Source: Methylotenera sp. (GTDB lineage Bacteria > Pseudomonadota > Gammaproteobacteria > Burkholderiales > Methylophilaceae). Taken from it: a stretch of DNA of 64,000 nt. Both the position numbers and the translations under genes were made by a program. Below are positions 33,774 through 49,876 of this stretch, one piece after another. The notes beneath the pieces were generated by a model. The model did no database searches, was not told the origin of the DNA, and was given only the letters and a program-made list of their open reading frames with translations. How positions within the stretch are numbered: position 1 is the first letter of the stretch; each line of letters begins with the position of its first letter. The stretch spans positions 1 to 64,000 of the forward strand of contig NZ_JAQSCU010000008.1 in assembly GCF_029945535.1 (NCBI RefSeq), read 5' to 3'.

Positions 33774-34058
33774 ATGAAGCTTCATCACAAAGGATTTCTA
33801 TTAGTCACCATCTCTAAATCTGGTGGGATTTGGGATCAACAACTCATTGAGAAAGTATTTACTGAGTATGATGAATCTGGTGACTTCAGGGAAAAAACCA
33901 TACGCATTGCTTTAGATGAATTAGCGGCGGCGGGATTGATAAAGCGTATTGAAAATAAACTTGAAACAATTAATGGTAAAGCCAAGCTGTTGTTTAAATA
34001 CCAGGTTTCAGATTTTGGAATAACCAGAATGGTAGATACTGGACTACTTCTACCTTAA
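33774..34058 (+). CDS. Small winged-helix-like protein
   Basis: 94 aa. The helix content and the phrase TIRIALDELAAAGLIKRIENKLE, followed by a beta hairpin ending in YQVSDFGITRMVDTG, resemble a winged-helix DNA-binding domain. There is no recognisable family name. It starts 21 nt after the DMT transporter gene and is probably co-transcribed. It may regulate the operon. Confidence 0.65.
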   Translation: MKLHHKGFLLVTISKSGGIWDQQLIEKVFTEYDESGDFREKTIRIALDELAAAGLIKRIENKLETINGKAKLLFKYQVSDFGITRMVDTGLLLP

Positions 34059-34072
34059 CAAAAGGAATAACG

Positions 34073-34189
34073 ATGAGTGAGTTTTGGGGTTATGCGGGGG
34101 CTGATATTTTAGCGATAGTAGTGATTGGCGCAGTAAGTTTTATCTGCTTGATTTGTGCCAGAGTATTTGTTTCCAACTACGGAAAATAG
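34073..34189 (+). CDS. 38-residue membrane peptide
   Basis: ATG at 34073 with AAAGGA 9 nt upstream; stop at 34187-34189. The product has one hydrophobic helix (ILAIVVIGAVSFICLICARV) and a short charged tail (VSNYGK). It starts 14 nt after the winged-helix gene. Small single-span peptides of this kind often associate with a transporter, here perhaps the DMT protein. Confidence 0.55.
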   Translation: MSEFWGYAGADILAIVVIGAVSFICLICARVFVSNYGK

Positions 34190-34249
34190 CGGCACTCTAG
34201 GTACCATTACTAAGTGCCACTTTCTAAGCACCGCGACTCAAGATACAAC

Positions 34250-35422: not shown

Positions 35423-35428
35423 TTACTC

Positions 35429-36304
35429 TCAATAACCACTTTCGCTAGAAACACATGGGCTTACAGCGTTAGCTTCATATCGTTTAACAGGTTTATCTTC
35501 AATATTTACTGTGGGTTCACTTGAGATACATGCATATGCTGAATGGTTGTGTATAGACTCAAAATTCTCACATTCAATTACATAGCTTTTAACGCGAGGA
35601 TCATTTTTAAATACTGTCGCAATGTCTCTCACCATATCTTCTACAAATTTAGGATTATCGTAAGCCCGTTCAGTCACATATTTTTCATCGGGTCGTTTAA
35701 GCAGGCCGTAAAGTTCAGAAGATGCTTGCGCTTCGACCATCTTGATCATATCTTCAAGCCACATAAACTCGTGTAGGGCGATAGTAATAGTGACGTGGGA
35801 GCGCTGGTTGTGTGCGCCGTAAGCTGAAATTTTCTTAGAACAAGGGCAAAGACTGGTGACTGGAATTAACACCTTCACTTTTACATCATGTTTGCCATTT
35901 TTGATCTCGCCAATTAAAGTAACTTCATAATCAAGTAAACTTTTCACACCAGAAACCGGCGCAGATTTATTGATGAAATACGGGAAAGTCATTTCGATAT
36001 GACCAGATTTCGCTTCCAGCCTTATCGCCATTTCTTGCAAGATACTCTTGAAACTCTCTACCGATATTTCACGCTCATTTTCATTGAGTATCTCGACAAA
36101 ACGAGACATATGCGTGCCTTTAAAATGCTTAGGCAAGTGCACGTACATATTAAACATTGCAACAGTGTGCTGAGCACTGCCAGCCTTATCTTTTACAATA
36201 ACTGGATGTCGTATTCCACGAATACCTACTTTATCAATCGCCAGCTGGCGAGTGTCTGCTAAGTTTTGTACATCTTGTAATGAAAAATCTATAGGCAAAT
36301 TCAT
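35429..36304 (-). CDS. folE2: GTP cyclohydrolase IB (FolE2)
   Basis: 291 aa. The family signature [23 protein letters not shown] and the metal-contact stretch [21 protein letters not shown] are present, as is the T-fold core [13 protein letters not shown]. The N-terminus is standard for FolE2. It makes dihydroneopterin triphosphate for folate or methanopterin. It is first in a two-gene operon with ribB. The link to C1 metabolism is that methyl groups released here are carried by tetrahydrofolate or methanopterin. Confidence 0.93.
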
Positions 36305-36387
36305 ATGTATCTACTTTCTAAAATTACTTTATTCATACCAATCACTTGAATAATGTACTGAGATGCAATTTAAAAACACTTAAAAAG

Positions 36388-36431
36388 AAGGAGGCAAGTG
36401 CAAACCCAATATGTAAACTGCTTGCCTCCTT
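36388..36431 (-). terminator. Terminator of the permease/small-protein operon
   Basis: AAGGAGGCAAG at 36388-36398 pairs with CTTGCCTCCTT at 36421-36431. On the minus strand it is followed by CTTTTTAAG. It lies after the last gene (36576) of the cluster 36576-39922. Confidence 0.6.
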
Positions 36432-36575
36432 TAAGGTTGCTACTCAACGTAAGGTTAGGAGATGACTTATCGTCAAACTTACGTAATACATTCTCATTCT
36501 TGGCTGCTTTCTTAACAATTCTCTTTAAGTACTACTACGTTTGGGTAGGTATGCCAAACAAACATAAATGTCTAA

Positions 36576-36866
36576 TTAATGCTCGCTTGAAAATATTTCC
36601 ATGCGATATTTCGCCCAATAATAGGCATCTAAGATAGAAATCGCATAGATGAAAATTCCACCTGATAACTTACCAACCATTGAAATATGTGGTTGCGCTA
36701 AGTTGAAGGTAATAAGCCCGAGAATAATCATAAAACACGCCATAAAGAAGCCTCTCTTAGGTGCATTATTGATTACCTGCCCCATACCTGGCAGGAAAAT
36801 AGCGACAAGTAATACCAGTTTTGCGTCTAAAGGTTTTTGTAAAGGTTGGTTATCATTAGTTGTCAT
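36576..36866 (-). CDS. Small membrane protein of the permease cluster
   Basis: 96 aa. A hydrophilic N-terminus is followed by three hydrophobic segments (about residues 16-34, 40-55 and 65-82), with LVAIFLPGMGQVINNAPKRGFF and YAISILDAYYWAKY. It has an AAAGGT ribosome site. I do not recognise the family. It lies 11 nt after the 226-aa protein gene and is the last of six genes transcribed together. Confidence 0.7.
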   Translation of the reverse strand: MTTNDNQPLQKPLDAKLVLLVAIFLPGMGQVINNAPKRGFFMACFMIILGLITFNLAQPHISMVGKLSGGIFIYAISILDAYYWAKYRMEIFSSEH

Positions 36867-36877
36867 AGATTACCTTT

Positions 36878-37558
36878 TTATGCCGCTTGAATTAATGCAT
36901 CGGCTTCTGAATTCTCAATATTTAGACGTATAGCGATAGCCTGTTTTAATAAGGCCTCAACTACAGAGCTGGAAATAGGTGTATTTTCGTAAATAGCATT
37001 TCGCATGATGAGGTACTCGCCCCGCTCAGCCTGCTTCACCATATAGGTCAATCTAGTGAAATTAGGCATGATCAATAACTCCTTCATATTCGCATCGACA
37101 AACAGTTGTGGAATGAAAGTATTAATTAAAGCCAAATCAGCTGCTTGATGTTGATATTTAAGAATGGCATGTTGTGGCCAATTTGCTGGAATAGCTAAAT
37201 TCCCATTCCACTGCCATGAAGGGCTATAGAACTCGTTATTAGAAGGCCTAACGATGAAGTCTAAAGTGCCAGTACTATGCACATTAGCTTCCACCTTAAC
37301 TAACAGCCAGAGCGGAGGCACTTTTCGCCAGCCCAGTGTATCTTCTACAATACTCAGCGACACCTTATAACCGTCGTAATCACCTTCAAGTACTGGTAAA
37401 TTTGCTTTGTCTAAACGTTGCTGCGCATTTGTCACTAATGGTGAACACTCGTCAAAGATCCGACCTCTAGCATCGGTCTTGTAATGTACAGCATGACTGT
37501 ATTTGCGATACAGCATCACAGTCATCACAATGAGTAATAGTAAAACGACTATATTCAT
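36878..37558 (-). CDS. Membrane-anchored protein of unknown function
   Basis: 226 aa from the ATG at 37558, with an AAGG site upstream; longer in-frame versions would run into the permease gene. Residues 1-20 form a hydrophobic anchor (MNIVVLLLLIVMTVMLY). The rest is a soluble domain, probably periplasmic, with WRKVPPLWLLVKVEANVHST and WQWNGNLAIPANWPQHAI. I recognise no family. It sits between the permease and the 96-aa membrane protein and may be an accessory of uptake. Confidence 0.7.
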   Translation of the reverse strand: MNIVVLLLLIVMTVMLYRKYSHAVHYKTDARGRIFDECSPLVTNAQQRLDKANLPVLEGDYDGYKVSLSIVEDTLGWRKVPPLWLLVKVEANVHSTGTLDFIVRPSNNEFYSPSWQWNGNLAIPANWPQHAILKYQHQAADLALINTFIPQLFVDANMKELLIMPNFTRLTYMVKQAERGEYLIMRNAIYENTPISSSVVEALLKQAIAIRLNIENSEADALIQAA

Positions 37559-37620
37559 ATTAAGCCTTATGTGGCAGCGGGGTTTAAGCCGCTGCCAATG
37601 GTTTACATCACTTGATAAGG

Positions 37621-39015
37621 CTAATAACCTTTTGGACGAGGCCAAGGCATCGTGAACTGGTCTGCGCGTTTTACAAACTTATAACGACGCAACACAAACC
37701 AGATGGATGCCAAGATATAGAACGCCATGATAGATAGCAGTGAAGCACCATAACCCAAGAATGTTGCAAAATAAGTTGCACAACACAAGGTTAACAAGGT
37801 AATCGCCGGTATCGGATGGAACGGATGAATATAACCACGGTGTATCGAACCCAATGGCCACATTTTTCTGAATTTAATCATGTTAAATGTCATAAACGTA
37901 TAGCCAAGCAAGCCTGATAAGATAGAGAACGTAATCACTTGATCCAACAACCCTGTAAACGCAAACGAAATCGCGATTGGCACTAAAAATAGTACTGAGC
38001 GATAAGGCGTGCGATATTTAGGATGGATGGCGCCAAAGAACACTGGCATATAACGGTCACGACCTAACGAGAACCAAGCGCGTGACGCATCATTTATACA
38101 ACCGTTTGCTGAAGCAATTGCTGCAAAAGCTGTCGCCACAAATAACATCAATTGCAGTTGACTGCTACCTAACAAGGTTGCCGCATCGTACATAGGTGTC
38201 ACTGCTTGTCCTAAGTATTGCCAAGGCATCAAACCTGTTGCCACAAACCATGTAATTGTGGCAGCGACTAACAATGTCATCATGCCGCCCATCGTACCAA
38301 GCGGGATAGAACGGCCTGCAGAACGAACCTCTTCTGCTGCCTGACATGTGCCTTCAATACCCAAGTAATACCACATACCGAATTGAAGCGCAGCAACCAC
38401 CCCTATCCAGCCATAAGGCAAATCTGTGAGTAATGCCTGATGCTGCAGCACGACACCTTGATGAAGAGGATCAACAGCCAGAAACAGCACGATTAAAGAA
38501 GTAAAGGCAAGAAAAGTAATGACCAAATTAAGCGTCAATGTTGCAAATACGCCACGATAGTTAAGCCATGCCAAAAAGGCCACAGTCAACACCACGAACG
38601 GCTTGGTATCAAGGTTGGCATAACCCATCACCTCTGCACCTGATTTCATCAGATCCCCCACCACCAGCGCGTCAGCAGCACATAACATAGTGTATGCCAT
38701 CACCAGGTACAATCCGACGTTAAACGCCATCAGTGGGCCAATAATGTGCTTAGCCTGCGTATACTGCCCACCTGCTGCAGCCACTGTTGAAGTCACTTCA
38801 GAATCGATCATCGCTACACAGGTGTATAACAACCCGATCACCCAACAAGCAATCAGCGAAGCGTAAGCGCCGCCCTTACCTACTGTAAAGTTCCAGCCCA
38901 TAAACTCACCCACCAACACAATACCAACACCCAAAGCCCATATGTGAAATGGGTTGAGTACTTTAAGCATAGCGATAGGCTTACTATTGCTAGTCGTAAT
39001 TTTCTCTTTAGCCAT
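37621..39015 (-). CDS. APC permease (ethanolamine-permease-like), probable methylamine uptake
   Basis: 464 aa with about 12 membrane segments. Landmarks include LNPFHIWALGVGIVLVGEFMGWNFTVGKGG, which resembles the start of ethanolamine permeases, and YLGIEGTCQAAEEVRSAGRSIPLG. Its ATG overlaps the stop codon of the 60-aa gene by one base (TAATG), so translation is coupled. Placed directly downstream of the N-methylglutamate operon, it probably imports methylamine or a related small amine. The substrate is inferred. Confidence 0.85.
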   Translation of the reverse strand: MAKEKITTSNSKPIAMLKVLNPFHIWALGVGIVLVGEFMGWNFTVGKGGAYASLIACWVIGLLYTCVAMIDSEVTSTVAAAGGQYTQAKHIIGPLMAFNVGLYLVMAYTMLCAADALVVGDLMKSGAEVMGYANLDTKPFVVLTVAFLAWLNYRGVFATLTLNLVITFLAFTSLIVLFLAVDPLHQGVVLQHQALLTDLPYGWIGVVAALQFGMWYYLGIEGTCQAAEEVRSAGRSIPLGTMGGMMTLLVAATITWFVATGLMPWQYLGQAVTPMYDAATLLGSSQLQLMLFVATAFAAIASANGCINDASRAWFSLGRDRYMPVFFGAIHPKYRTPYRSVLFLVPIAISFAFTGLLDQVITFSILSGLLGYTFMTFNMIKFRKMWPLGSIHRGYIHPFHPIPAITLLTLCCATYFATFLGYGASLLSIMAFYILASIWFVLRRYKFVKRADQFTMPWPRPKGY

Positions 39016-39197
39016 TATGTGCGCTCCTCTTCCATATGAACGCCATGAACGACATCGTCTTCACCGCCTTCACGTGAGCTCATCAAATATTCTTCGTCGT
39101 ATTGCGAAGAAATCATAAATGCATCTACTACCATCCAAACCAACATGACCGCTGATATGCTCCATGCTGCATACACCAGAATATCCCAAAATTTCAT
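39015..39197 (-). CDS. 60-residue single-span protein coupled to permease
   Basis: One N-terminal membrane helix (ILVYAAWSISAVMLVWMVVDAFM) and an acidic, His-containing tail (EEYLMSSREGGEDDVVHGV). A GGGAGA site lies 6 nt before its ATG. It overlaps the permease start by one base. It may be a regulatory or assembly subunit of the permease. No family is recognised. Confidence 0.75.
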   Translation of the reverse strand: MKFWDILVYAAWSISAVMLVWMVVDAFMISSQYDEEYLMSSREGGEDDVVHGVHMEEERT

Positions 39198-39223
39198 GAT
39201 ATTTCTCCCTTTAAAGTGAGCAA

Positions 39224-39616
39224 CTATTTATTATCGAATTTTTCTCTAATGACTTCGCGGTATTGTTTATCTGACACCTTCAACATAAAAATGAAGTAAC
39301 CAGCAACCACAAGTATGGTAATAATCAACATCATTGGATCGATGCTGTAATCGAACCTGCTGTTAATTAACGTTGCAGCTTTTTCAGGGTCATAACCAAG
39401 TTTTACCCATTGCTGTTGCTGTATCTCATTCTGGCCTAAAGATTCCCAGCTGACTTTTACAACGGCTGCTGCATTTGCTGCGGCAGCTTCAGCTTTCGCT
39501 TCTGCCTTGAATAGCAATGGCACCATTAAACTGGCGTAAACCAAGACTAAAACTAAAATTGTGTCAAAGATTTGACCGAACATGCCCTGTTTTGGAGGGG
39601 TATAATTTTTACTCAT
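39224..39616 (-). CDS. Membrane protein with Ala/Glu-rich periplasmic segment
   Basis: 130 aa. Two membrane helices (about residues 15-36 and 95-113) flank a segment of about 58 residues that includes AKAEAAAANAAAV and GQNEIQQQQWVKLGYDPEKAA. The C-terminus is charged (DKQYREVIREKFDNK). A GGAG site precedes the ATG. It lies 9 nt after the first gene of the cluster. I do not recognise it. Confidence 0.75.
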   Translation of the reverse strand: MSKNYTPPKQGMFGQIFDTILVLVLVYASLMVPLLFKAEAKAEAAAANAAAVVKVSWESLGQNEIQQQQWVKLGYDPEKAATLINSRFDYSIDPMMLIITILVVAGYFIFMLKVSDKQYREVIREKFDNK

Positions 39617-39625
39617 ACGGTTCTC

Positions 39626-39922
39626 CTAATGGTTGATTTTAGCGGCACGGTTGGCGTCTAGATGTTTGATATCTAAACCATAGATGAAGTCTTTATCTTC
39701 TTTGAAGTGCTTGGTCATGGCAAAAACTGACGCTGTATTGAAAAGCATCAACATAAAGCTAGCCACGTAAAGTACGGTGCGAATGTTGTCGTCTTTCACT
39801 ATGCCTAATATCGCAATTAGCACAAAAATTACAGCTGCCCATAACAATGCAACATCGAACCAAGCCATCAGGCAGTCTCGTGTATACATGTCATTCATTC
39901 TTTTTTTATTATCATCTCTCAT
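39626..39922 (-). CDS. Small two-span membrane protein heading permease cluster
   Basis: 98 aa. A charged N-terminus (MRDDNKKRMNDMYTRD) precedes two membrane helices (LLWAAVIFVLIAILGIV and VLYVASFMLMLFNTASVF), then a charged tail (KHFKEDKDF). A GGAGAG site lies before the ATG. It is the first of six co-directional genes ending at 36576, downstream of the mgsC terminator. The family is unknown. Confidence 0.75.
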   Translation of the reverse strand: MRDDNKKRMNDMYTRDCLMAWFDVALLWAAVIFVLIAILGIVKDDNIRTVLYVASFMLMLFNTASVFAMTKHFKEDKDFIYGLDIKHLDANRAAKINH

Positions 39923-40075
39923 AACACTCTCCTCATAATTTTTTATATATTGGAATACTTGTGAAATAGAACGTGTGACATAAAACCTGTTGAAAGAACG
40001 ATTACTGTAGTCACCAAAATGGTAGGTTAATTAAGTATCGACATGGGTTTTGTAATAAAGCTATTCCTCTAGGCG

Positions 40076-40103
40076 AAAAAAATGCGGCTATGGTTAAGCC
40101 GCA
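40076..40103 (-). terminator. Rho-independent terminator of the N-methylglutamate operon
   Basis: TGCGGCT at 40083-40089 pairs with AGCCGCA at 40097-40103. On the minus strand it is followed by seven or more T (A-run at 40076-40082). It lies about 160 bp after mgsC. Confidence 0.85.
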
Positions 40104-40115
40104 CAAATAAAAAGT

Positions 40116-40218
40116 GAGAGTATGCGCATTTAATATGAACGTTTTTTCTACCTTAATTTGGTAGTTGGAGGATAAGCCCGCCTTAAAGTAGAAAAAACTA
40201 TTCATTACGCATACCCTC
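40116..40218. repeat. Long imperfect inverted repeat (MITE-like)
   Basis: GAGAGTATGCG at 40116-40126 mirrors CGCATACCCTC at 40208-40218, and GTTTTTTCTAC at 40141-40151 mirrors GTAGAAAAAAC at 40188-40198. The roughly 100-bp unit could fold into one long hairpin. It lies between mgsC and its terminator. Confidence 0.5.
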
Positions 40219-40260
40219 ATAAAGCCCAATAAAATTGGGAGGGAAACTTTTAGAAAAGAA

Positions 40261-41622
40261 TCAGAATTTAGAAACTCCTGGAATCCAGCTAGTACCAGCT
40301 AAAGGCACTTGTGCCATTGCTGAAGCTTCGATTGTTAATGCCACCAAGTCTTCTGGCTCTAGATTATGCAAATGTGATTTGCCGCAAGCACGTGCAACTA
40401 CTTGTGCTTCCATTGTCATCACTGCAATATAGTTAGCCAAACGATGACCCGCTTTGATTGGGTCAACACGTTTCATTAGTTCAGGATCTTGCGTAGTAAT
40501 ACCTGCAGGATCTTTACCTTCGTGCCAGTCATCATAAGCACCAGCAGTTGTACCTAACTTTTGGTACTCTTCTTCAAGATGCGGATCATTATCGCCAAGT
40601 GCGATCAAAGCCGCTGTACCAATCGCCACTGCATCAGCACCCAAAGCAATTGCTTTAGCGACATCAGCACCGTTACGAATGCCACCAGAAACAATCAATT
40701 GCACACTATCTTTACCATTGCGATAAACACCTAAATCTTGCAATGCTTTCACTGCTGGACGAATTGCAGCCAAGATTGGTATACCAACATGCTCAATAAA
40801 TACTTCTTGAGTCGCCGCAGTACCACCTTGCATACCATCCAACACAATGACATCTGCACCGGCTTTAACAGCAAGCGCCACATCGAAGTAAGGACGTGTT
40901 GCCCCTATTTTTACGTAGATTGGTTTTTCCCAGTCTGTAATTTCACGCAGTTCAGCAATTTTAATTTCCAAGTCATCTGGACCAGTCCAGTCAGGATGAC
41001 GACATGAGGAACGTTGGTCGATACCTTCTGGCAAGCAACGCATTTTTGCAACACGTGCTGTAATTTTTTGACCTAGCAACATACCGCCGCCACCTGGTTT
41101 AGCGCCTTGACCAATCACCAACTCAATCGCGTCTGCTTTGCGTAAATCGTCTGGGTTCATACCGTAACGTGAAGGCAGGTATTGATAAACGAGTGTTGTA
41201 GAGTGGCCACGTTCTTCTTGTGTCATGCCACCATCACCAGTCGTTGTACTTGTGCCAGCAGCTGTTGCACCACGACCTAATGATTCTTTAGCTGGGCCTG
41301 ATAATGAACCGAAACTCATACCAGCAATTGTCACTGGTGTTTTTAAATGAATTGGTTTCTTAGCAAAACGTGTACCCAAAACTACATCAGTACCACATTT
41401 TTCACGGTAGCCTTCTAACGGATAGCGGCTGACTGATGCACCTAGGAATAGCAAGTCATCAAAGTGCGGCAATTTGCGTTTTGAACCTGCGCCACGAATA
41501 TCGTAGATACCTGTTGCGGCAGCACGTCTGATTTCCGAGTTAGTATATTCATCAAACGTTGCAGAATAACGCGGTGTCGTTTGAGGGATTTTATGTACTT
41601 CTTTTGATTTATCGTCACTCAT
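40261..41622 (-). CDS. mgsC: N-methylglutamate synthase subunit C (GltB-like FMN domain)
   Basis: 453 aa from the ATG at 41622, which has a GGAG site and lies one base after the mgsB stop; longer in-frame starts would overlap mgsB. It matches the FMN-binding glutamate-synthase core: PVTIAGMSFGSLSGPAKESLGRGA, GQGAKPGGGGMLLGQKI, YVKIGATRPYFDVALAVKAGADVIVLDGMQGGT and SGGIRNGADVAKAIALGADAVAIG. It forms N-methylglutamate with MgsA and MgsB by moving methylamine from gamma-glutamylmethylamide onto a glutamate backbone. It is the last gene before the terminator. Confidence 0.93.
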   Translation of the reverse strand: MSDDKSKEVHKIPQTTPRYSATFDEYTNSEIRRAAATGIYDIRGAGSKRKLPHFDDLLFLGASVSRYPLEGYREKCGTDVVLGTRFAKKPIHLKTPVTIAGMSFGSLSGPAKESLGRGATAAGTSTTTGDGGMTQEERGHSTTLVYQYLPSRYGMNPDDLRKADAIELVIGQGAKPGGGGMLLGQKITARVAKMRCLPEGIDQRSSCRHPDWTGPDDLEIKIAELREITDWEKPIYVKIGATRPYFDVALAVKAGADVIVLDGMQGGTAATQEVFIEHVGIPILAAIRPAVKALQDLGVYRNGKDSVQLIVSGGIRNGADVAKAIALGADAVAIGTAALIALGDNDPHLEEEYQKLGTTAGAYDDWHEGKDPAGITTQDPELMKRVDPIKAGHRLANYIAVMTMEAQVVARACGKSHLHNLEPEDLVALTIEASAMAQVPLAGTSWIPGVSKF

Positions 41623-41623
41623 T

Positions 41624-42316
41624 TTAGTATGCTCCTGCATTATCAACATGGAAGTGGTACAAGGTACGGGCAGAGCCATATTGCTTAAAGCTATCTGGGC
41701 TGACATCTGCATGACCTGATTTTTTCAACAAATCAGCTAGAATTTGTTTATCTTCCGCATTCATTGTTTTTTCTTCGCAGTCCGCGCCCAGGCTTTTCAC
41801 CTTACCGCGCACAAACAACTTAGCTTCATAAATTGAGTCGCCAAGACCTTCACCTGCATCACCCAAGATGACAAAGTTACCTGCTTGCGCCATGAAAGCT
41901 GAGAAGCTACCCACTGAACCACCAACTACAATGTCAACGCCTTTCATCGCAATACCTGTACGTAAGCCAGCATCACCATCAATGATCAGCAAGCCACCGT
42001 TGGCAGTTGCGCCAGCCGCATTTGAAGCGAAACCTTTCACATGCACAACACCTGACATCATGTTTTCAGCCACACCACTACCTGCGCTGCCTTCAATGGT
42101 CACTTTAGCGATTTGATTCATACCAGCTGCGTAATAGCCAGCATGGCCTTTAATCGTCACGTCCACTTCGGCTTTCAAACCTACTGCTACGTTATGCGCG
42201 CCATTTGGATTCTCAATGACAACCTTTTTTCCATTCAGACTACTCGCATCACCATGAAGGAATTGATTCACTTCACGTAATGGTTTGGTGTCTAAGTCAA
42301 ATTTTAGAGTTTCCAT
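41624..42316 (-). CDS. mgsB: N-methylglutamate synthase subunit B (GXGXG domain)
   Basis: 230 aa of GltB C-terminal type beta-helix, with repeated glycine turns (GLKAEVDVTIKGHAGYYAAG, GSAGSGVAENMMSGVVHVKG). It overlaps the end of mgsA by 13 nt and ends one base before mgsC. The subunit gives structure to the synthase complex and corresponds to the third domain of glutamate synthase. Confidence 0.92.
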   Translation of the reverse strand: METLKFDLDTKPLREVNQFLHGDASSLNGKKVVIENPNGAHNVAVGLKAEVDVTIKGHAGYYAAGMNQIAKVTIEGSAGSGVAENMMSGVVHVKGFASNAAGATANGGLLIIDGDAGLRTGIAMKGVDIVVGGSVGSFSAFMAQAGNFVILGDAGEGLGDSIYEAKLFVRGKVKSLGADCEEKTMNAEDKQILADLLKKSGHADVSPDSFKQYGSARTLYHFHVDNAGAY

Positions 42317-43200
42317 ACATACATCTCCTTAGGTGAAGGTTCGAACACCTTCGCGTTTTTAATATCTGGCAAATGGGCTAATGAGCGGAACTCAGAAGCA
42401 ATTGCAACATAGTCATCATGTTCAGCAATAATCGCTGGTTTGCAGCCATATGGATCGCGCACTAAAGCAAGCTCAGTACTTGTACCCATTAACAATGTGT
42501 AAAAACCATCCAGCTCTTCAAAACCATGATTCAATGCAGTTTTAAGATCATCACCTTCACGCATACGCCATTGCAAAAAGCGGCAAGCAGCTTCAGTATC
42601 GTTATCTGTTTCAAACTCGATACCTTCTTTTTGCAATTTACGGCGTAGACTATTCGCGTTTGATAAAGAACCGTTATGTACTAAGCACCAGTCTTCACCA
42701 GCGGTAAATGGGTGTGCATGTGCAGGCGTCACAGCAGATTCAGTTGCCATACGCGTATGACCAACCAAGTGCGTGCCTTTGAAGTTTTTAAAGTCATAAC
42801 GGTCAGCCACTTGTTGTGGTGTGCCTACGTCTTTATAGATGTCCATTAACTGACCAACAGACAACAAATGTAATTGTGGGTAATGTTCTTTCAACCACAT
42901 TTTTACTGTTGCTGGCTCAAGCGTTGTCGTTAACACAGCATGATTTTCTTTTGGTTCAATCTTAGCCTTGATGCTTAAGTGTTTCTCAAAATCATGGCCT
43001 AATTTAGTCCAGTTGAAATCTGTAGCACCAGAATACAGGCTGAATTTTCTCGCATCAGCGGCTACTGGCGCCGTAAACATCGCCATACCAGCTGAGTCAG
43101 GCCCACGCTCAGTCATGCCGATTAGCATAGGCATCATGAGCTCACCAATTGAGTCACGCAATTTGGGATTTCTTACTAATAATCCGACAATTCCACACAT
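42304..43200 (-). CDS. mgsA: N-methylglutamate synthase subunit A (class II amidotransferase)
   Basis: 298 aa. The N-terminal nucleophile is C2 (MCGIVGLL). Amidotransferase landmarks GHTRMATESAVTPAHAHPF and CLVHNGSLSN are in place. In the pathway it releases methylamine from gamma-glutamylmethylamide and channels it to MgsC. It lies 61 nt downstream of gmaS in the same direction and overlaps mgsB. Confidence 0.94.
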   Translation of the reverse strand: MCGIVGLLVRNPKLRDSIGELMMPMLIGMTERGPDSAGMAMFTAPVAADARKFSLYSGATDFNWTKLGHDFEKHLSIKAKIEPKENHAVLTTTLEPATVKMWLKEHYPQLHLLSVGQLMDIYKDVGTPQQVADRYDFKNFKGTHLVGHTRMATESAVTPAHAHPFTAGEDWCLVHNGSLSNANSLRRKLQKEGIEFETDNDTEAACRFLQWRMREGDDLKTALNHGFEELDGFYTLLMGTSTELALVRDPYGCKPAIIAEHDDYVAIASEFRSLAHLPDIKNAKVFEPSPKEMYVWKL

Positions 43201-43261
43201 ACTTTTCTCCTTACAAATATAGTTAAATTTTTGCTCTTACAATAAAACCAGTCACTAAAAT

Positions 43262-44596
43262 CTAGAAAAACTCTACGTAGCGATTGATTTCCCAATCTGA
43301 AACATGGCGCTGATACTCCATCGATTCCGCACGCTTAATTTTGATAAATTCTTCAGATAGCGAATCACCCAATGCATCACGAATGACTTTGTCCCCCTCA
43401 AATTCGTCTATAGCTTCACTCAAACTTTGTGGCAATATTCCGATGCCCTGCTCGCGCATTTGTGCAGGAGACAAGTCATATAAATTATTGGCATGACCAG
43501 CACCTGGATGCAGTTCACGTTTAACACCATCAAGACCCGCAGCAATCACTGCAGCCGTCGCTAGATATGGGTTGCAGCTACCATCTGGTAAGCGCAGCTC
43601 TAAACGACCATATGGAATACGTACCATCGTTGAACGGTTGTTATTGCCATAAGAAATATACGCTGGCGCCCATGTAGAGCCGGTGAGAGACTGGCTCACC
43701 ACTAGACGTTTATATGAGTTAACCGTTGGGCAAGCTAAGGCCGTGATTGCAGGCGCGTGCGCAAGAATACCGCCCATAAAGTGATATGCTAATTTTGATA
43801 AACCATGGCCAGTTGTATCGCTATCGTCATGGAACAAGCTTTTCTTGCCGTCGCCAATCGACATATGCATATGCATACCATTGCCTGGGCGATTGCCAAA
43901 AGGTTTCGGCATGAACGAGCAAATCATGCCTAACTCATTGGCAATATGGCTGGCCGCCATTTTGAACATCAAGTAATCATCTGCACTTTTTAAACAGTCT
44001 GCGTAGGTATAGTTGATTTCAAATTGACCATTTGCATCTTCATGGTCGATTTGGTAAATATCTAAGCCAGCTGCAATTAACGTTTCTGTTAATCGCTCCA
44101 AAAACGCTGATTGTTTTGACATGCTCTTATAGTCATAACAAGGTTTTTGCAATGTATCAGTTGAGTCATACGGGTGAATACCGCCTTTTTCATCTTTACG
44201 CAGCAAAGAGAATTCTGGTTCTAGTCCTGTGTAAAGAATCCAGCCATTTTTGGCAAGACGGTCAGTTTGCGCTTTGAGGACTACACGTGAGTCATGTCCA
44301 TAAGGCTTTTCATTAACGTGGCCATCACAAACAATGCGCGCGTAGCCTGGTTGCCAAGGTACTAATGTGAGGGTTGATAAATCACCGACCGCCATATAAT
44401 CTGGACCATTAGGTGCAATGCCCATACCCCAAATTGCTCCACCAGCAAAGCCAGCGCCACCTTTAAGAATACTACCGAGATGTTCGGCTGGCACTGACTT
44501 AACCTTAGCAACACCATGTATATCCACAAACTGAGCTAATATGTACTTAACATCATTATCTTTTAGAAACTTTTTTGCTTCATCAAACGTTTTCAT
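43262..44596 (-). CDS. gmaS: Gamma-glutamylmethylamide synthetase
   Basis: 444 aa of glutamine-synthetase fold. It shows [19 protein letters not shown], the metal/glutamate motif [29 protein letters not shown] and the ATP-binding [24 protein letters not shown]. The ATP-dependent reaction joins methylamine to glutamate. It could be taken for GlnA, but the flanking mgs and mgd genes settle the role. It is separated from mgdD by 146 bp and from mgsA by 61 bp. Confidence 0.94.
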
Positions 44597-44742
44597 TCAT
44601 TTCTCCCTGAAAATCCGATGTTTCTACATTAATAAAATGTATCCGCATCAACCTTAAATTAAGTCATCTCCAACGATTTCTCAGCACTAGCTTTATTTTT
44701 TATCGCAAGCTCTTGTTCTGACACTAAACTCCAGTTTTGATA

Positions 44743-45423
44743 CTAAGAGTTCTGATACTGAGCAAGCCCTACTGCACCGCCACCTAGTTCTGTCGCAATT
44801 TCTATTAACACTTCCCACATATAAGGTCCGTAAGTACCATCACACCAAACACGGTAGACTGGTTCTCCGTTTAAGGTTTGGCGTATAACGGTGGCCGAAA
44901 TCCCTGCTACTTGAGTCATGATGAGGTCTTTTGTAGCAAGTGATTTCTCACGTAAATCGAGTGAGCAAAGTTCAGAAAACAAGTTAAGTGCTTCGCTACC
45001 ACTGACAATAAATGCAGCATCTGCACGTGGCACTTTGTAAACACTTGCTACACGCGTTGCATCACTGGCTAATCGAGTACAGGCTGAACCGCCCAGCTGG
45101 TCTTCAATCAAGAATTCGCTTGAACCCAGGCGTAAAACCAATGTTTTTTGTTCACATATCGTCCATGAGTTCGGTGTAGTTGGAATCGCTATTCCGCGCT
45201 CAAGCAACCATTGCGTTGCGTTAGGCCCTTTCACGCCATAGCGCGATAAACAACTTACATCAGCAACACCTAGCACTTTTTTTCTGGCATCTTCAATCGC
45301 GGTACTTGCAAACTCCACTGCTGTATCCATGCCGTTAATCACTTCCCATTTAGCAGAGTCTCTTGGTTGAGCATGCGCTACAGGTGATGTTTGGATGATA
45401 CTTTTGACGTCAAACTGTTGCAT
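44743..45423 (-). CDS. mgdD: N-methylglutamate dehydrogenase subunit D (SoxG-like)
   Basis: 226 aa. It resembles the gamma subunit of heterotetrameric sarcosine oxidase: ADVSCLSRYGVKGPNATQWLLERGI near the N-terminus and a folate-type DAAFIVSGSEALNLFSELC in the middle. It lies one base after mgdC. In the complex it flanks the folate-binding region. It is the last of the four mgd genes. Confidence 0.9.
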   Translation of the reverse strand: MQQFDVKSIIQTSPVAHAQPRDSAKWEVINGMDTAVEFASTAIEDARKKVLGVADVSCLSRYGVKGPNATQWLLERGIAIPTTPNSWTICEQKTLVLRLGSSEFLIEDQLGGSACTRLASDATRVASVYKVPRADAAFIVSGSEALNLFSELCSLDLREKSLATKDLIMTQVAGISATVIRQTLNGEPVYRVWCDGTYGPYMWEVLIEIATELGGGAVGLAQYQNS

Positions 45424-45424
45424 A

Positions 45425-48319
45425 TCATGCTCCCTTTAAAGTCTTAATAAATGGGGTTCTAATCACGGTCGCGGCGACTAATGCGCCACTATCCACACGA
45501 ATTTGGAATACTGAACCTGCTTCTTTTTTAGAAGGTGTCACATAGGCAAAACCTATGCAACGATCAAGGTATTTGCTGTAACTGATACTCGTCACACGAC
45601 CTAAAATATCGCGTCCATCTACAACCAAGTTGCAATCCATAGGCATTTCACCTGTGTAGTTTTCAGCCAATACAAAAGGCACTAATTGTTTTCTTAATGG
45701 ACGTTTAGCTAAAATTGTTAAGCTTCGTTGCCCAATAAAGTAAGGCTTGCTCATTTTTATTGCCCACTCAGCACCAATTTCAAATGGATTAGTTAAGCCG
45801 TCAGTATCAACCCCTGGCATCGCATGACCCATTTCAAGACGTAACAAGCGTTGTGTATCACTACCAAATGGACGTAACGCGTGCTTCTTACCAGCGGCTA
45901 TCAAGGCATTCCAAAGATATGGTATTTGCCCCATCGGTGCGTGTAATTCATATCCGTTATCTGCTACGAATGCCACTCTAATCATGCGTGTTTCTACAGC
46001 AGCTACTTGGCTTTCACGCACACTACTCATCGGGAATGACTCGTAGGACAGGTCTAAGTCGGTCAGTGTTGAGAGAATCTCACGCGCAGCTGGGCCGGCA
46101 ATATTGATAGCACCAAAAGCCCCAGTCACATTCACTAAACCAAGATTAAGTTGCCACATCTGTTGCGAACGTTGCATTTCGCGGTAAACAGCGGCTGCAT
46201 TGGATGTGCCGATAGAAAGATAGAACAAATCATCTGCAAGGCGGCTTGCAATACCGTCGTCAACCACTACGCCTGACTCATCAAGCAACATCACATAACG
46301 GCATGAGCCTACTTTTTGGTCTGTATAAACACCAGTGAAAAAACGCTCTAAGAACAAAGCTGCATCTGGACCATGAATTTCAATCTTGCCGAATGAGCTA
46401 CCATCAATGATGCCAGCGGTTTTACGCACTGCAAGTGCTTCAGTTTGAATTGCATCTTCTTTAGACTGACCAGCTGCGGGGTAATAAGCCGCACGTTTCC
46501 ATGCGCCAATATCTGTAAACACTGCGCCATTTGCCTGATGCCAATCATGCAAGGAAGTCAAACGGTGTGAATGGAAACCACGTCCGCCTAAGTGTCCGAT
46601 TGGTGTTGGATGAAAAAATGGTCTTGAAGTCGTTGTGCCAATTTTCTCCACTGGCAAGTCACGAATCTTAGCTAAGATTCGAATCGCATTCATATTGGAA
46701 TGCTTACCTTGGCTAGGACCCATACCCACTGTAGTAAAGCGCTTCATTAGCTCGATATTGTCAAAGCCCTCTTTAGCCGCGTTCACAAAATCTTTGATTT
46801 GAATATCTTCGTCAAAGTCTACAAAGTTTTTACCTTTAGGATGTGGCACCATAGGGTAAGGATGGCTAGGAGAAATGCCTACATGCTTCTCAGCCTCATT
46901 TTGTGGGGCTTGCAGACCTAAATGACGGATTGCATCATTCGCTGCACGAACACCATCACGCACGCGCTGCTCAAGCTCAAAGACACCATTCACTTTACCA
47001 GCGGCAAACATACCATTTGGTAAGCGACTTGGGACAAATTGCTCTACGTCATAATCAAACTGCATGCCTGTACCAGCTTGATACAGTAAAGCACCTGCTG
47101 GTGCCCAGCCTGCGCTCATCGCAACACCATCACACTCAAGTGTAAATTTGTTATCAGTTAAGGCAATATTTTGCTTTTCGTCATACGCGCAAATCACTGC
47201 ACCGCGAACACCAGATTTGTCTGAAGATGCAATCGCTTCATAAACACAATGACCGATATAAACTTTAACACCACGCTTTGCAAGTACAGCACTATATGCA
47301 GCACTGCCTGTTTGGCGCATATCGACCAAAGCTGCAATTTTGGTACCAGCTTGCAACAAATCTAAGGCAACACGATAGCCGTAATCATTGGCTGTTACGA
47401 CGATGCCATTATTAAACGGTTTCACTGCGTAACGGTAGATTAAACGCTGCACAGCAGAGCCTAACATCACACCTGGTAAATCGTTGTATCTGAATACTGG
47501 TGGTTGTTCAAAAGCACCACTGGCAACAATCACAGCCTTAGCACGGACTTTATTGATGCCAGAATCGCTTACTACAGGAATAAGATGATCTGGGTAGTAA
47601 CCAGCGGCATAAGCACCTGCCATTACCTTAATATTTGGCATATTGGCAGCCTTAGCCAATAAAATATCAAGCTGTGAAACCACGCTTGAGTCACCAGCAC
47701 GGTTATAGCCTAAGCTGCCGCCAAGCTGACGGTTCTCATCCACAATCGTCACTTCAAGGCCAGCTTCTGCTGCAGCACAAGCTGCTGTTAAACCTGTTGG
47801 ACCTGCACCGATCACCAGCACATCACAATGGGAGTGTGTTTTACGTTTTAAGATGCGAGGGTAATCAAAATTGACGATACCCAAACCAGCAGCCTTACGA
47901 ATGACGCTTTCCCAAAATGGAAATAATCGACGTGGCGTATGGAAAGCTTTATAGTAAAAACCAACCGGCAATAATGGTGAAATAGAATCAATGTAGCTAT
48001 TCTTATCTTTTTTAACGCCTCCACTGGTATTCACTGCGGTCAAGACCATGCCCTCTTTCACTTCAACCACATCGGCACGAATGTTAGTATCTATGCCGTC
48101 AGTCACAAGAACGTTCACATCATGGTTTGCTAAGCTCAATACCCCACGTGCACGGTGATATTTAAAGCTACGACCTAATACTTTTTGACCAGCAGCCCAC
48201 AATGCGCTGCTAATGGTATCGCCTTCAAATGCTGAAAACGCTTCACCTTCAAAAGTGAAGTTGATTTTTTTTGTTCGGTTAACCCATTCCCCGGCTTGCT
48301 TGGGTGTACGAAAAATCAT
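45425..48319 (-). CDS. mgdC: N-methylglutamate dehydrogenase subunit C (SoxA-like)
   Basis: 964 aa. The N-terminal 90 residues form a ferredoxin-like domain (INFTFEGEAFSAFEGDTISSAL). A dinucleotide fold follows (VLVIGAGPTGLTAACAAAEAGLEVTIVDE), then a second redox domain. The last about 370 residues form a GcvT-like folate domain (IIDGSSFGKIEIHGPDAALFLERFFTG). The layout equals the sarcosine oxidase alpha subunit. The complex oxidises N-methylglutamate and releases glutamate plus a C1 unit. It overlaps mgdB by 4 nt and precedes mgdD by one. Confidence 0.94.
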   Translation of the reverse strand: MIFRTPKQAGEWVNRTKKINFTFEGEAFSAFEGDTISSALWAAGQKVLGRSFKYHRARGVLSLANHDVNVLVTDGIDTNIRADVVEVKEGMVLTAVNTSGGVKKDKNSYIDSISPLLPVGFYYKAFHTPRRLFPFWESVIRKAAGLGIVNFDYPRILKRKTHSHCDVLVIGAGPTGLTAACAAAEAGLEVTIVDENRQLGGSLGYNRAGDSSVVSQLDILLAKAANMPNIKVMAGAYAAGYYPDHLIPVVSDSGINKVRAKAVIVASGAFEQPPVFRYNDLPGVMLGSAVQRLIYRYAVKPFNNGIVVTANDYGYRVALDLLQAGTKIAALVDMRQTGSAAYSAVLAKRGVKVYIGHCVYEAIASSDKSGVRGAVICAYDEKQNIALTDNKFTLECDGVAMSAGWAPAGALLYQAGTGMQFDYDVEQFVPSRLPNGMFAAGKVNGVFELEQRVRDGVRAANDAIRHLGLQAPQNEAEKHVGISPSHPYPMVPHPKGKNFVDFDEDIQIKDFVNAAKEGFDNIELMKRFTTVGMGPSQGKHSNMNAIRILAKIRDLPVEKIGTTTSRPFFHPTPIGHLGGRGFHSHRLTSLHDWHQANGAVFTDIGAWKRAAYYPAAGQSKEDAIQTEALAVRKTAGIIDGSSFGKIEIHGPDAALFLERFFTGVYTDQKVGSCRYVMLLDESGVVVDDGIASRLADDLFYLSIGTSNAAAVYREMQRSQQMWQLNLGLVNVTGAFGAINIAGPAAREILSTLTDLDLSYESFPMSSVRESQVAAVETRMIRVAFVADNGYELHAPMGQIPYLWNALIAAGKKHALRPFGSDTQRLLRLEMGHAMPGVDTDGLTNPFEIGAEWAIKMSKPYFIGQRSLTILAKRPLRKQLVPFVLAENYTGEMPMDCNLVVDGRDILGRVTSISYSKYLDRCIGFAYVTPSKKEAGSVFQIRVDSGALVAATVIRTPFIKTLKGA

Positions 48320-48594
48320 TTGCCTTCCTCCTGAGTTGTATTGTTTTGGCCAAGAAGATAGGTACGTGTGACTTTATCTGTCAGCGTATTGCGCTCTGCA
48401 ATAAACCATGTGCCGCTTGGTGAGTGATACCACCATTCTTTTTTGTCGCCAGGCGCACCGCTGCGGTTATGCACATAAGCAGCCCACTCAGCATCAGTAC
48501 AAGTATCCTGATCTGGCGCTTGTCTATATTCGCCACCGAAGACAAACTCGCTTAGCGGTCTTGTTCCATTCATGGGACAGGTGAGTAATTTCAT
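48316..48594 (-). CDS. mgdB: N-methylglutamate dehydrogenase subunit B (SoxD-like)
   Basis: 92 aa, matching sarcosine oxidase delta. It has a Cys-Pro start (LLTCPMNGTRPLSEFVFGGEYRQ), C32, and WWYHSPSGTWFIAERNT, which is near-universal in this subunit. C7 and C32 are visible; I do not see the full four-ligand zinc set of other SoxD proteins. The gene overlaps mgdC by 4 nt (ATGA). Confidence 0.9.
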   Translation of the reverse strand: MKLLTCPMNGTRPLSEFVFGGEYRQAPDQDTCTDAEWAAYVHNRSGAPGDKKEWWYHSPSGTWFIAERNTLTDKVTRTYLLGQNNTTQEEGK

Positions 48595-48634
48595 TTCATA
48601 TTCCTCTGATTATTTAACTCGCGTGAATAAGCCG

Positions 48635-49876
48635 CTAATGGCCCACTGACGCCGCACCCTTTTCCCCAGTCAGTTCGTAATCTTCAAAACGTGACAAGCG
48701 GAATGAGTGAATTAAATCTGGTGCACTATCATTTGCAATGGTTTGTGCCATGGTTTTGCCGCTAATAGGTGTAGCTTTGAAGCCCCAAGTACCCCAACCT
48801 GCATCTAGATAAAAACCTTCGATAGGTGTTTTACCCATAATCGGTGCGAAATCTGGCGTCATATCAGCCATACCTGCCCATTGGCGCACAACTTTTACAT
48901 TGGATAAGAAAGGGAACATATCCAACATATGAGAAGTAAGTCCCTCTACGAAATCTAATGTAGAACGCGTTGAATGCACTTCATAAGGGTCAAGCGATGA
49001 CCCCATCACTAACTCTCCGCGAGAAGATTGACTCACATACACATGTAAGCTGCCTGAAACCAAAATAGTGTCTAACCAAGGTTTCATAGGCTCAGTCACG
49101 CAGGCTTGTAATGGATGAATAACAATCGGTGTTTCAAGGTCTACCATCTCTGTGATACGTGGCGTAAAGCCAGCCACTGCTGATAGCACTTGTTTAGTTT
49201 CTATGTAACCTTTATTGGTTTTAACACCGCAGACCTTGCCATTCTTAACATCAATACCAAGCACTTCAGTATTTTGGTAAATTTCGGCACCTAAACGGTC
49301 TGCACCGCGTGCATAACCCCAAGCTACGCCATCATGACGAGCCACTGAACCAGGCGCATGAAACAAAGCACCTAAGATTGGCGCTTGACCACTACAGCTT
49401 AAATCTAACTGAGGACAAGCTTTAGCGATTTCATCAGGACCAACTACACGACTCTCAACGCCTACATGTTTATTTACTTCAGCACGCCACCTCATAGTAC
49501 GCATCGCTGATTCAGTATGTGCAAGGGTGAAGTGACCACGTGTTGAATAGAAAAGATTTAAATCTAGCTCTTCAGAAAGACCTTCGTAGATCTTGACGCT
49601 GGCATCATAGAAATTAACGCCTTCTGGTGTGAGGTAGTTTGAACGAACGATGGTCGTGTTGCGTCCTGTATTACCGCCGCCTATGTAACCTTTTTCAAGC
49701 ACACACACATTAGTAATACCATGGTCTTTAGCCAAGTAATAAGCTGCTGCTAAACCATGTCCACCGCCGCCGATAATCACTACGTCGTATGATTTCTTTG
49801 GGGTCTCGTGCGACTTAAAAAAGCGTGGTGCTGGATGCTCTTTTGACAGTGCGAATTTAAGTAATCTTAAGGGCAT
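48635..49876 (-). CDS. mgdA: N-methylglutamate dehydrogenase subunit A (SoxB-like flavoprotein)
   Basis: 413 aa. A DAO-type FAD fold at the N-terminus (VVIIGGGGHGLAAAYYLA) is followed by CVLEKGYIGGGNTGRNTTIVRSNYL, the SoxB region for the covalent flavin, and a C-terminal DAGWGTWGFKATPISGKTMA. It oxidises the N-methyl amino acid and passes electrons within the complex. It is the first mgd gene, and its promoter region (49877-50161) is shared with the divergent hutG-like gene. Confidence 0.93.
   Translation of the reverse strand: MPLRLLKFALSKEHPAPRFFKSHETPKKSYDVVIIGGGGHGLAAAYYLAKDHGITNVCVLEKGYIGGGNTGRNTTIVRSNYLTPEGVNFYDASVKIYEGLSEELDLNLFYSTRGHFTLAHTESAMRTMRWRAEVNKHVGVESRVVGPDEIAKACPQLDLSCSGQAPILGALFHAPGSVARHDGVAWGYARGADRLGAEIYQNTEVLGIDVKNGKVCGVKTNKGYIETKQVLSAVAGFTPRITEMVDLETPIVIHPLQACVTEPMKPWLDTILVSGSLHVYVSQSSRGELVMGSSLDPYEVHSTRSTLDFVEGLTSHMLDMFPFLSNVKVVRQWAGMADMTPDFAPIMGKTPIEGFYLDAGWGTWGFKATPISGKTMAQTIANDSAPDLIHSFRLSRFEDYELTGEKGAASVGH

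What the first reader, a model, noticed from the sequence alone, without database searches (positions are those of the whole stretch)
36576..39922. Permease with five unassigned small proteins: possible new multi-subunit transporter
Six tightly packed genes include an ethanolamine-permease-like protein whose start overlaps the stop of a 60-aa single-span gene. Three more are clearly small membrane proteins and one is a 226-aa anchored protein. APC permeases normally work alone, so a fixed set of partners would be novel. Position after the NMG operon points to methylamine.
Basis: partly seen in the sequence, partly recalled or inferred. Interest (0 to 1): 0.7.

Follow-up and report, generated by a model that had tools for sequence, protein, structure and literature searches.

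The report
Six-gene putative methylamine transporter module
Many bacteria that live on methylamine carry an unbroken set of six genes, one amine carrier and five unnamed membrane proteins, and they look like the parts of a single uptake machine that I did not find described.

Summary
The six genes are at the stated coordinates and order. They form a fixed module: A98-B130-C60-PERMEASE-E226-F96. All six occur, on one strand and in order, in 73 of 80 fetched loci from alpha-, beta- and gammaproteobacteria; the other 7 are cut by contig ends. Separate searches with B130 and with the permease hit the same 14 of 398 Pseudomonadota genomes and the same 22 of 72,556 plasmids. All 14 genomes encode GmaS, first enzyme of the N-methylglutamate (NMG) pathway, found in 48 of 398. 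The module lies before, after or away from the NMG genes, so it travels as a unit. It is optional: 27 of 43 GmaS-positive Methylophilaceae lack it. A universal stress protein (USP) gene with an ATP-binding motif sits between permease and E226 in 31 of 78 loci and is fused in frame to the permease in both Methyloceanibacter loci. Best reading: a heteromeric methylamine importer with an APC carrier core and five dedicated small partners. Complex formation and substrate are inferred; no structure prediction finished. Three module genomes, all MAGs, show no GmaS (51).

The parts
39626..39922 (-). A98: 98-aa membrane hairpin, two spans; conserved C-terminal motif IYGLDIxHLDxNR
   Evidence: (D16 W28 N62 I80 Y81 D84 D89 invariant in 40 sequences); no family above cut-off, scattered weak Pfam hits among orthologs
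39224..39616 (-). B130: 130-aa protein with two spans and a ~50-residue loop; signatures YxPPxQxGxGQxFDS and TWESLxQN...QWxKLGY
   Evidence: (20 invariant columns in 41 sequences); used as independent probe
39015..39197 (-). C60: 60-aa single-span protein; invariant W4 W12 W21 D25 L38 S40 E43 G44, acidic tail
   Evidence: (40 sequences); stop overlaps permease start by 1 nt
37621..39015 (-). Permease: 464-aa APC-type carrier, proposed core of the transporter
   Evidence: PF13520 E 2.8e-25; nearest solved relatives xCT, GkApcT, CATs, LATs by sequence; E37 in the motif GEFMGWN invariant in 36 orthologs
36878..37558 (-). E226: one N-terminal span plus ~200-residue domain, probably cytoplasmic; invariant D73 R78 P81 W84 R104 S112 K159 R169 Y182 R186
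   Evidence: 45 sequences; 4.5 K/R against 1.1 D/E in the 15 residues after the span; no Pfam family above cut-off, only PDB sequence hit a designed protein at E 0.25
36576..36866 (-). F96: 96-aa membrane protein, LPGMGQVxN motif; weak DUF5683 resemblance
   Evidence: DUF5683 at E up to 0.1 in 33 of 40 members, best E 4.9e-05; window copy below the gathering score
40082..40104 (-). Terminator-like hairpin between mgsC and A98
   Evidence: pattern match; 4 found in the region, 3.5 expected by chance
40261..41712 (-). mgsC-like (N-methylglutamate synthase, glutamate-synthase-like subunit); ORF limits, start not settled; gene name recalled
   Evidence: PF01645 E 6.9e-88
41624..42316 (-). mgsB-like (GXGXG subunit); gene name recalled
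   Evidence: PF01493 E 1e-10
42304..43200 (-). mgsA-like (class II amidotransferase subunit); gene name recalled
   Evidence: PF13522 E 1.3e-19
43262..44596 (-). gmaS: gamma-glutamylmethylamide synthetase (type III glutamate-ammonia ligase)
   Evidence: TIGR03105 616 bits, cut-off 470
44743..49876 (-). mgdD-, mgdC- and mgdA-like genes of N-methylglutamate dehydrogenase (sarcosine-oxidase-like); gene names recalled; mgdB not examined
   Evidence: Pfam GCV_T, SO_alpha_A3, DAO

Best explanation
The six genes encode one heteromeric uptake system for methylamine (as methylammonium) that feeds the cytoplasmic N-methylglutamate pathway. The APC-type permease is the carrier. A98, B130, C60 and F96 are small membrane partners that pack against it and stabilise or gate it, as single helices do with other carriers. 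E226, and where present the ATP-motif universal stress protein, form a cytoplasmic regulatory part. That part could shut uptake when the pathway or energy supply cannot keep up, since imported methylammonium can leak out again as uncharged methylamine and waste energy. Shown: the fixed six-gene unit, its co-occurrence with GmaS, its mobility relative to the NMG genes, and the permease-USP fusion. Inferred: physical complex, methylamine as substrate, and the regulatory role of E226 and USP.
For: Linkage: 73 of 73 uncut loci have all six in order; 12 of 13 phylum loci show all five partners, the 13th (L179) ends at a contig end, and one of the 12 (L176) is the L106 contig again. All-or-none for permease and B130, the one partner used as an independent probe: the same 14 of 398 genomes, the same 22 of 72,556 plasmids; in 11 Methylophilaceae without the permease ortholog B130 gave only a chance-level E 0.037 hit inside a 931-aa frame. 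The 12 paralogous permeases examined (of 20 paralog hits at 28-31% identity) have none of the five partners. Substrate: GmaS in 14 of 14 module genomes, 48 of 398 overall (47, 49; hypergeometric 2e-14, by genus 7 of 7 within 34 of 213, 1.5e-6; relatedness not corrected); 16 of 18 module Methylophilaceae have a close gmaS, 43 of 150 overall. Possible replacement: Amt in 12 of 40 module-free NMG loci against 1 of 66 module loci that show gmaS (100, 113); counting only Amt close to the gmaS-mgsABC block, 7 of 40 against 1 of 66. USP between permease and E226 in 31 of 78 loci, 31 of 31 with G-2X-G-9X-G(S/T); permease and USP in one frame in L119 and L124. In Methyloversatilis, NMG genes and 'co-clustered conserved proteins' rise 6-10-fold on methylamine, and the abstract lists amino-acid permeases among functions that respond (PMC5023235; abstract passage, section 3.1 read); M. 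universalis EHg5 carries the module after mgsC (L091).
Against: No physical interaction, uptake or mutant data exist here. 27 of 43 GmaS-positive Methylophilaceae have no permease ortholog, so the pathway does not need it (11, 29). Three of 17 module genomes checked have no GmaS over cut-off (L066, L072, L111; all MAGs), and two of 18 module Methylophilaceae (G111, G116, completeness 86 and 84%) show only a ~47% GmaS relative. In 19 of 80 loci no NMG synthesis gene lies in the fetched stretch, some of them short contigs; on Aminobacter plasmid pUSP1 none is annotated within 9 kb. A stricter GmaS probe (window GmaS, E 1e-150) found GmaS in only 2 of the 14 phylum module genomes. The Amt comparison is biased: 5 of the 12 Amt genes lie 6-8 kb upstream of gmaS, beyond the reach of the module stretches. 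A98, C60, E226 and F96 were not probed genome-wide on their own. The Methyloversatilis paper does not name the induced neighbours.
Confidence: 0.6

Rival explanations
1. The permease imports methylamine alone. The five small proteins form a separate membrane unit that is only co-regulated and co-inherited, for example an anchor that holds GmaS or other NMG enzymes at the membrane, or a sensor.
For: Gene linkage cannot tell one complex from two. E226 has a large, probably cytoplasmic domain with ten invariant mostly polar residues, which would also suit docking or sensing. In 31 of 78 loci a USP gene separates the permease from E226 and F96.
Against: The module is also found far from NMG genes, and in 3 MAGs without detected GmaS. 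B130 was not found without the permease in the sets searched. The permease sits inside the order in every one of the 73 complete loci.
Confidence: 0.2
2. It is a transporter complex, but for something other than methylamine: another small amine, or export of a pathway product such as ammonium, glutamate or gamma-glutamylmethylamide.
For: APC carriers change substrate easily (recalled); the closest named family is ethanolamine permease. Two MAGs (L066, L072) carry the module with no GmaS over cut-off and no NMG gene in the fetched stretch.
Against: 14 of 14 module genomes of the phylum sample have GmaS. The permease keeps the acidic motif of the amine-permease paralogs, GEFMGWN against GEYFGWS. 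Amt, whose family is known to carry methylammonium (recalled), lies in 12 of 40 module-free NMG loci, 7 of them close to gmaS-mgsABC.
Confidence: 0.18
3. Ordinary operon neighbours with no functional bond; the linkage is hitch-hiking or recent common descent.
For: Some sampled genomes are close relatives, and permease and partner distances correlate (r 0.80-0.82), as simple co-inheritance would also give.
Against: Order kept across alpha-, beta- and gammaproteobacteria at partner identities down to 21-35%, while flanking genes (folE2, ribBA, NMG genes) change side or vanish.
Confidence: 0.02

Closest known systems
APC-type amine permeases, NCBIfam TIGR00908 (ethanolamine permease)
   Same: Same fold family; shares an acidic motif with the ~30% identical paralogs in Methylophilaceae
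   Different: Scores 173 bits against a cut-off of 382; the 12 paralog loci examined have none of the five partners
GkApcT-MgtS (bacterial APC carrier with a bound single-helix protein)
   Same: APC carrier with a single-span small protein packed against TM5 (PMC5803215, passages); GkApcT is among the nearest solved relatives by sequence
   Different: There the partner came from E. coli, the expression host, and is one protein; here five partners are encoded with the carrier
Mammalian heteromeric amino acid transporters (LAT light chain with 4F2hc/rBAT)
   Same: APC carrier with a single-span partner carrying a large soluble domain; LAT and xCT chains are among the nearest solved relatives
   Different: E226 has no family match above cut-off and its charge pattern puts its domain in the cytoplasm, whereas the heavy-chain domain is outside (recalled)
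Transporters with dedicated small partners, such as MetP-MetS of Corynebacterium (recalled) or AcrB-AcrZ (PMC10710835, passages)
   Same: Small single-span proteins that tune a transporter
   Different: Other transporter families; one small partner, not five
Amino acid permease-USP fusions in archaea, and TeaD with TeaABC (PMC3673472, passages)
   Same: USP next to or fused with a permease; TeaD regulates the ectoine transporter TeaABC by the title of a paper cited there
   Different: Here the USP is an optional seventh member (31 of 78 loci) of a larger set; absent from the window
Amt in gmaS-mgsABC-amt operons (Pseudomonas sp. C5pp; PMC8292978, passages)
   Same: Encoded beside the same NMG genes and called a methylamine transporter there
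   Different: Unrelated family (PF00909); may take the module's place in some genomes

Membership tests
APC superfamily / PF13520 amino acid permease | Pfam gathering score | tested here: met
   89.6 bits, cut-off 27; residues 29-420
Ethanolamine permease (TIGR00908 equivalog) | Curated equivalog cut-off | tested here: not met
   173.4 bits, cut-off 381.75
Amt/Mep/Rh ammonium transporters (PF00909) | Pfam match of the permease | tested here: not met
   No PF00909 match to the permease at E up to 1
Heteromeric amino acid transporters (LAT-4F2hc type) | Partner with one span and glucosidase-like extracellular domain (recalled) | tested here: not met
   E226 matches no Pfam family above cut-off; charges suggest the domain is cytoplasmic (inference)
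Heteromeric amino acid transporters (LAT-4F2hc type) | Physical complex of carrier and partner | not testable with these tools
   Only single-chain prediction is offered; the E226 job was unfinished and the permease job was never accepted
N-methylglutamate pathway companion | Occurs in genomes with GmaS | tested here: met
   14 of 14 in the phylum sample. Of 18 loci asked (16 of the 19 without an NMG synthesis gene in the stretch, plus L112 and L124) 17 were held and 14 have it; the 3 without are MAGs
N-methylglutamate pathway companion | Required wherever the pathway occurs | tested here: not met
   27 of 43 GmaS-positive Methylophilaceae and 34 of 48 GmaS-positive phylum genomes lack it
ATP-binding universal stress protein (optional seventh gene) | PF00582 and motif G-2X-G-9X-G(S/T) | tested here: met
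   PF00582 in the three proteins scanned, of 31; motif in 31 of 31
Methylamine transporter | Transports methylamine | not testable with these tools
   Needs an uptake assay

The most novel reading that the evidence does not exclude
The first known bacterial APC carrier that works only as an obligate complex of six or seven dedicated subunits, whose E226/USP part gates uptake by cell energy and hands methylamine straight to membrane-docked GmaS, so that the volatile amine never builds up in the cytoplasm.
Probability: 0.2. Interest if true: 0.88.

Novelty: new variant of a known kind. Interest (0 to 1): 0.7.

Why it matters
Methylamine is a widespread carbon and nitrogen source and the NMG pathway that uses it is cytoplasmic (recalled). 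In the papers seen here its uptake route is an Amt in one operon (PMC8292978, passages), unnamed permeases that respond to methylamine (PMC5023235, abstract passage), or 'still unclear' in pelagic Methylophilaceae (PMC6794327, passages). This module gives a concrete candidate present in alpha-, beta- and gammaproteobacteria, defines five protein families that have no Pfam or NCBIfam name above cut-off, and offers a bacterial model for carriers that need dedicated partners. It is directly testable by single-gene deletions.

Tried and rejected
No fold evidence is used.

MADH test: periplasmic methylamine dehydrogenase should make the importer unnecessary, so I looked for PF06433 in 65 chosen genomes. 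It is too rare to decide: 1 of 18 module genomes, 3 of 27 GmaS-positive module-free, 2 of 17 with neither, 0 of 3 MAGs.

Co-transcription with the NMG operon: a terminator-like hairpin lies between them, a pattern match no commoner than in shuffles; left open. Rfam found nothing at gathering threshold in 34000-45000. PDB sequence search of E226 gave one hit to a designed protein at E 0.25, B130 none at E up to 5. Pfam scans of A98 orthologs gave scattered weak hits, rejected as chance.

Permease conservation over 43 loci (mean 79%) exceeded that of GmaS (64%) and MgsC (75%), but the lowest GmaS pair is 34% alike, so some of the GmaS picked may be paralogs; I give this little weight.

Hitch-hiking, and 'small genes vary freely', rejected.

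Papers: six searches on methylamine or NMG transport in the open-licence library returned no paper whose listing, or passages where I opened it, describes the six genes as a system; four more were for precedents. Latypova 2010 was not looked up and Gruffaz 2014 is not held, so neither was read.
Full report
What is there. The window carries, on the - strand, an NMG operon (mgd-like genes, gmaS, mgsA, mgsB, mgsC; mgs and mgd names recalled) followed by six tightly spaced genes: A98, B130, C60, permease, E226, F96. The finding's coordinates and lengths are right, including the one-base overlap between the 60-aa gene's stop and the permease start, which has a GAGGAG ahead of it. The permease is an APC-family carrier; its nearest named family is ethanolamine permease, below the equivalog cut-off. 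None of the other five reaches a Pfam or NCBIfam cut-off. Scanning 45 orthologs of E226, 40 of F96 and 40 of A98 against Pfam gave only weak matches, the steadiest being F96 to DUF5683 (33 of 40, best E 4.9e-05). Database relatives of E226 (381 above threshold, only 8000 candidates scored) and B130 (1397) have no Pfam domain in the 120 rows shown of each; where a row has a name it is mostly hypothetical, with a few stray names for B130 such as NhaC, FliL or tryptophanyl-tRNA synthetase.

Is the set fixed? A search of the species-representative genomes with the permease gave 344 encoded relatives, of which the best 80 were kept. Profiles of all six proteins, built by iteration from the window's genes, were run over every open frame of 30 residues or more. 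73 of 80 loci hold all six, on one strand and in the same order; the 7 others are cut by contig ends where the missing genes should be. Gaps are short, except between permease and E226, where up to 1581 nt occur. The hosts include Methylotenera and relatives, Methylophaga, Paraburkholderia, Methyloversatilis, Methyloligella, Methyloceanibacter, Roseovarius and Aurantimonas. Mean pairwise identity over the 73 is 80% for the permease and 34-54% for the partners, so the linkage is old.

Because those loci were fetched with the permease, I also probed with one partner, B130, alone. In 398 Pseudomonadota genomes the two probes hit the same 14, side by side; the weakest B130 hit has E 3e-37 and no other genome has one at 0.01. 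In 72,556 plasmids both hit the same 22 records. In 11 Methylophilaceae without the module B130 gave one chance-level match at E 0.037. Of 13 phylum loci fetched at greater length, 12 show all five partners and L179 ends at a contig end; L176 is the L106 contig again. The related but distinct permeases of Methylophilaceae (28-31% identical) have none of the partners in the 12 loci examined, of 20 such hits, with ~1.5 kb flanks. For permease and B130 the module is all-or-none in what was sampled; A98, C60, E226 and F96 were not probed genome-wide on their own.

What does it go with? In the same 398 genomes the GmaS family model (TIGR03105, over cut-off) rings in 48, including all 14 with the module (2e-14 by hypergeometric, 1.5e-6 counting genera, relatedness not corrected). 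In 12 of the 14 GmaS lies within about 10 kb of the module, in one about 15 kb away, and in one on another contig. A stricter probe, the window's own GmaS at E 1e-150, had found only 2 of the 14. Among 80 loci the nearest NMG synthesis gene is upstream on the same strand in 45, downstream on the same strand in 14, downstream on the other strand in 2, and not in the stretch in 19, some of them short contigs. For 16 of those 19, plus L112 and L124, the whole genome was asked for GmaS: 17 of the 18 were held and 14 have it; L066, L072 and L111, all MAGs, do not. The unit moves independently of the pathway genes yet mostly keeps their company.

It is not universal. In 150 Methylophilaceae, 18 have the permease at 82% identity or more and 43 have a GmaS at 71% or more; 16 have both, and 27 have GmaS without the module. 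Of those 27, 20 NMG loci were fetched, and 20 more from the 34 GmaS-positive, module-free genomes of the phylum sample; none of the 40 contains any of the five small genes. In 12 of the 40 an ammonium transporter of the Amt type lies in the fetched stretch, against 1 of 93 module loci, or 1 of the 66 that also show gmaS (Fisher 2.4e-5). This comparison is not even: module stretches are centred on the permease and reach less far upstream of gmaS, and in 5 of the 12 (all Methylophilaceae) Amt lies 6-8 kb upstream of gmaS. Counting the other 7 only, it is 7 of 40 against 1 of 66 (Fisher 0.004), on related genomes. In L191, L194 and L195 the Amt gene follows mgsC directly on the same strand, the place the module takes in the window; PF00909 was confirmed for L191. 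A published operon gmaS-mgsABC-amt is described the same way (PMC8292978, passages). This suggests, without proving, replacement of one uptake route by another.

A seventh member. In 31 of 78 loci that show both genes, a USP gene sits between the permease and E226; of the 78, each locus with a gap above 300 bp there has it. All 31 carry the motif G-2X-G-9X-G(S/T), the spacing given for typical ATP-binding USPs in a table of PMC3673472 (passages). In both Methyloceanibacter loci the permease frame runs without a stop into the USP domain. Amino acid permease-USP fusions are known in archaea (same paper). The window itself has no USP.

How it probably works. The permease is the carrier. It keeps an acidic residue, E37, in the motif GEFMGWN, like the amine-permease paralogs (GEYFGWS); in amino acid carriers the first-span site holds glycines that bind the substrate's carboxylate (recalled), which would fit a substrate that is an amine with no carboxylate. 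A98 and B130 have more basic residues at their ends than in the loop between spans, which weakly fits both ends in the cytoplasm; E226's domain follows a strongly basic stretch and so is probably cytoplasmic. The USP fusion places a probable nucleotide-binding domain at the end of the carrier. Together this suggests a carrier with membrane partners that stabilise or gate it and a cytoplasmic control part. A reason for control exists: methylammonium brought in can escape as neutral methylamine (general chemistry). Steps shown: gene set, distribution, fusion. Steps inferred: complex, substrate, control.

Known or new? Single-helix partners of APC carriers (GkApcT-MgtS; PMC5803215, passages), small proteins that tune transporters (PMC10710835, passages) and permease-USP fusions are known. 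A fixed set of five encoded partners for one bacterial APC carrier was not found in six searches on methylamine or NMG transport of an open-licence library, which misses most subscription papers. The nearest published trace is in Methyloversatilis universalis FAM5: 'co-clustered conserved proteins' of the NMG cluster rise 6-10-fold on methylamine, and the abstract lists amino-acid permeases among the functions that respond (PMC5023235; section 3.1 read, abstract passage); they are not named there. The annotated records of Paracoccus aminophilus pAMI6 and Aminobacter pUSP1 call the set hypothetical, hypothetical, hypothetical, amino acid permease, hypothetical, hypothetical; GmaS lies beside it on pAMI6, and no NMG gene is annotated within 9 kb on pUSP1.

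Limits. The 80 loci are the best of 344, so the least similar permeases of that scan were not examined; the phylum and plasmid probes partly cover this. Open-frame starts were chosen by rule. MADH data could not separate the substrate hypotheses. No structure was obtained. Physical association is the main missing evidence.

Noticed in passing
outside the window, G000:C8:72046-73365: A second type III glutamate-ammonia ligase over the TIGR03105 cut-off (655 bits) in the window's own genome, higher scoring than the NMG-linked gmaS (616 bits).
   Followed up: no
L066:12132-13076: In this MAG the F96 frame continues into a SAM-methyltransferase-like sequence (315 aa in all); could be a fusion or an assembly fault. 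Name by eye, not by a family search.
   Followed up: no
L121 and 13 other module loci: A family led by a response-regulator-like protein of 207 aa (name by eye) occurs in 14 loci, mostly on the opposite strand, median about 1.8 kb upstream of the permease; candidate regulator of the module.
   Followed up: no
L131-L147 and L191-L209: An XRE-type regulator-like protein of ~207 aa (name by eye) occurs in 28 of 40 module-free NMG loci, median about 5.6 kb upstream of gmaS.
   Followed up: no
L060 (record titled Candidatus Methylopumilus universalis MAG): Carries NMG genes and the module, although a paper says pelagic Methylophilaceae lack NMG and MADH (PMC6794327, passages); the label may be wrong.
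   Followed up: no
L052, L064, L065, L117 and others: folE2 and ribBA lie downstream of the module in 22 and 23 of the 93 loci clustered, at varying distance, a looser linkage.
   Followed up: partly
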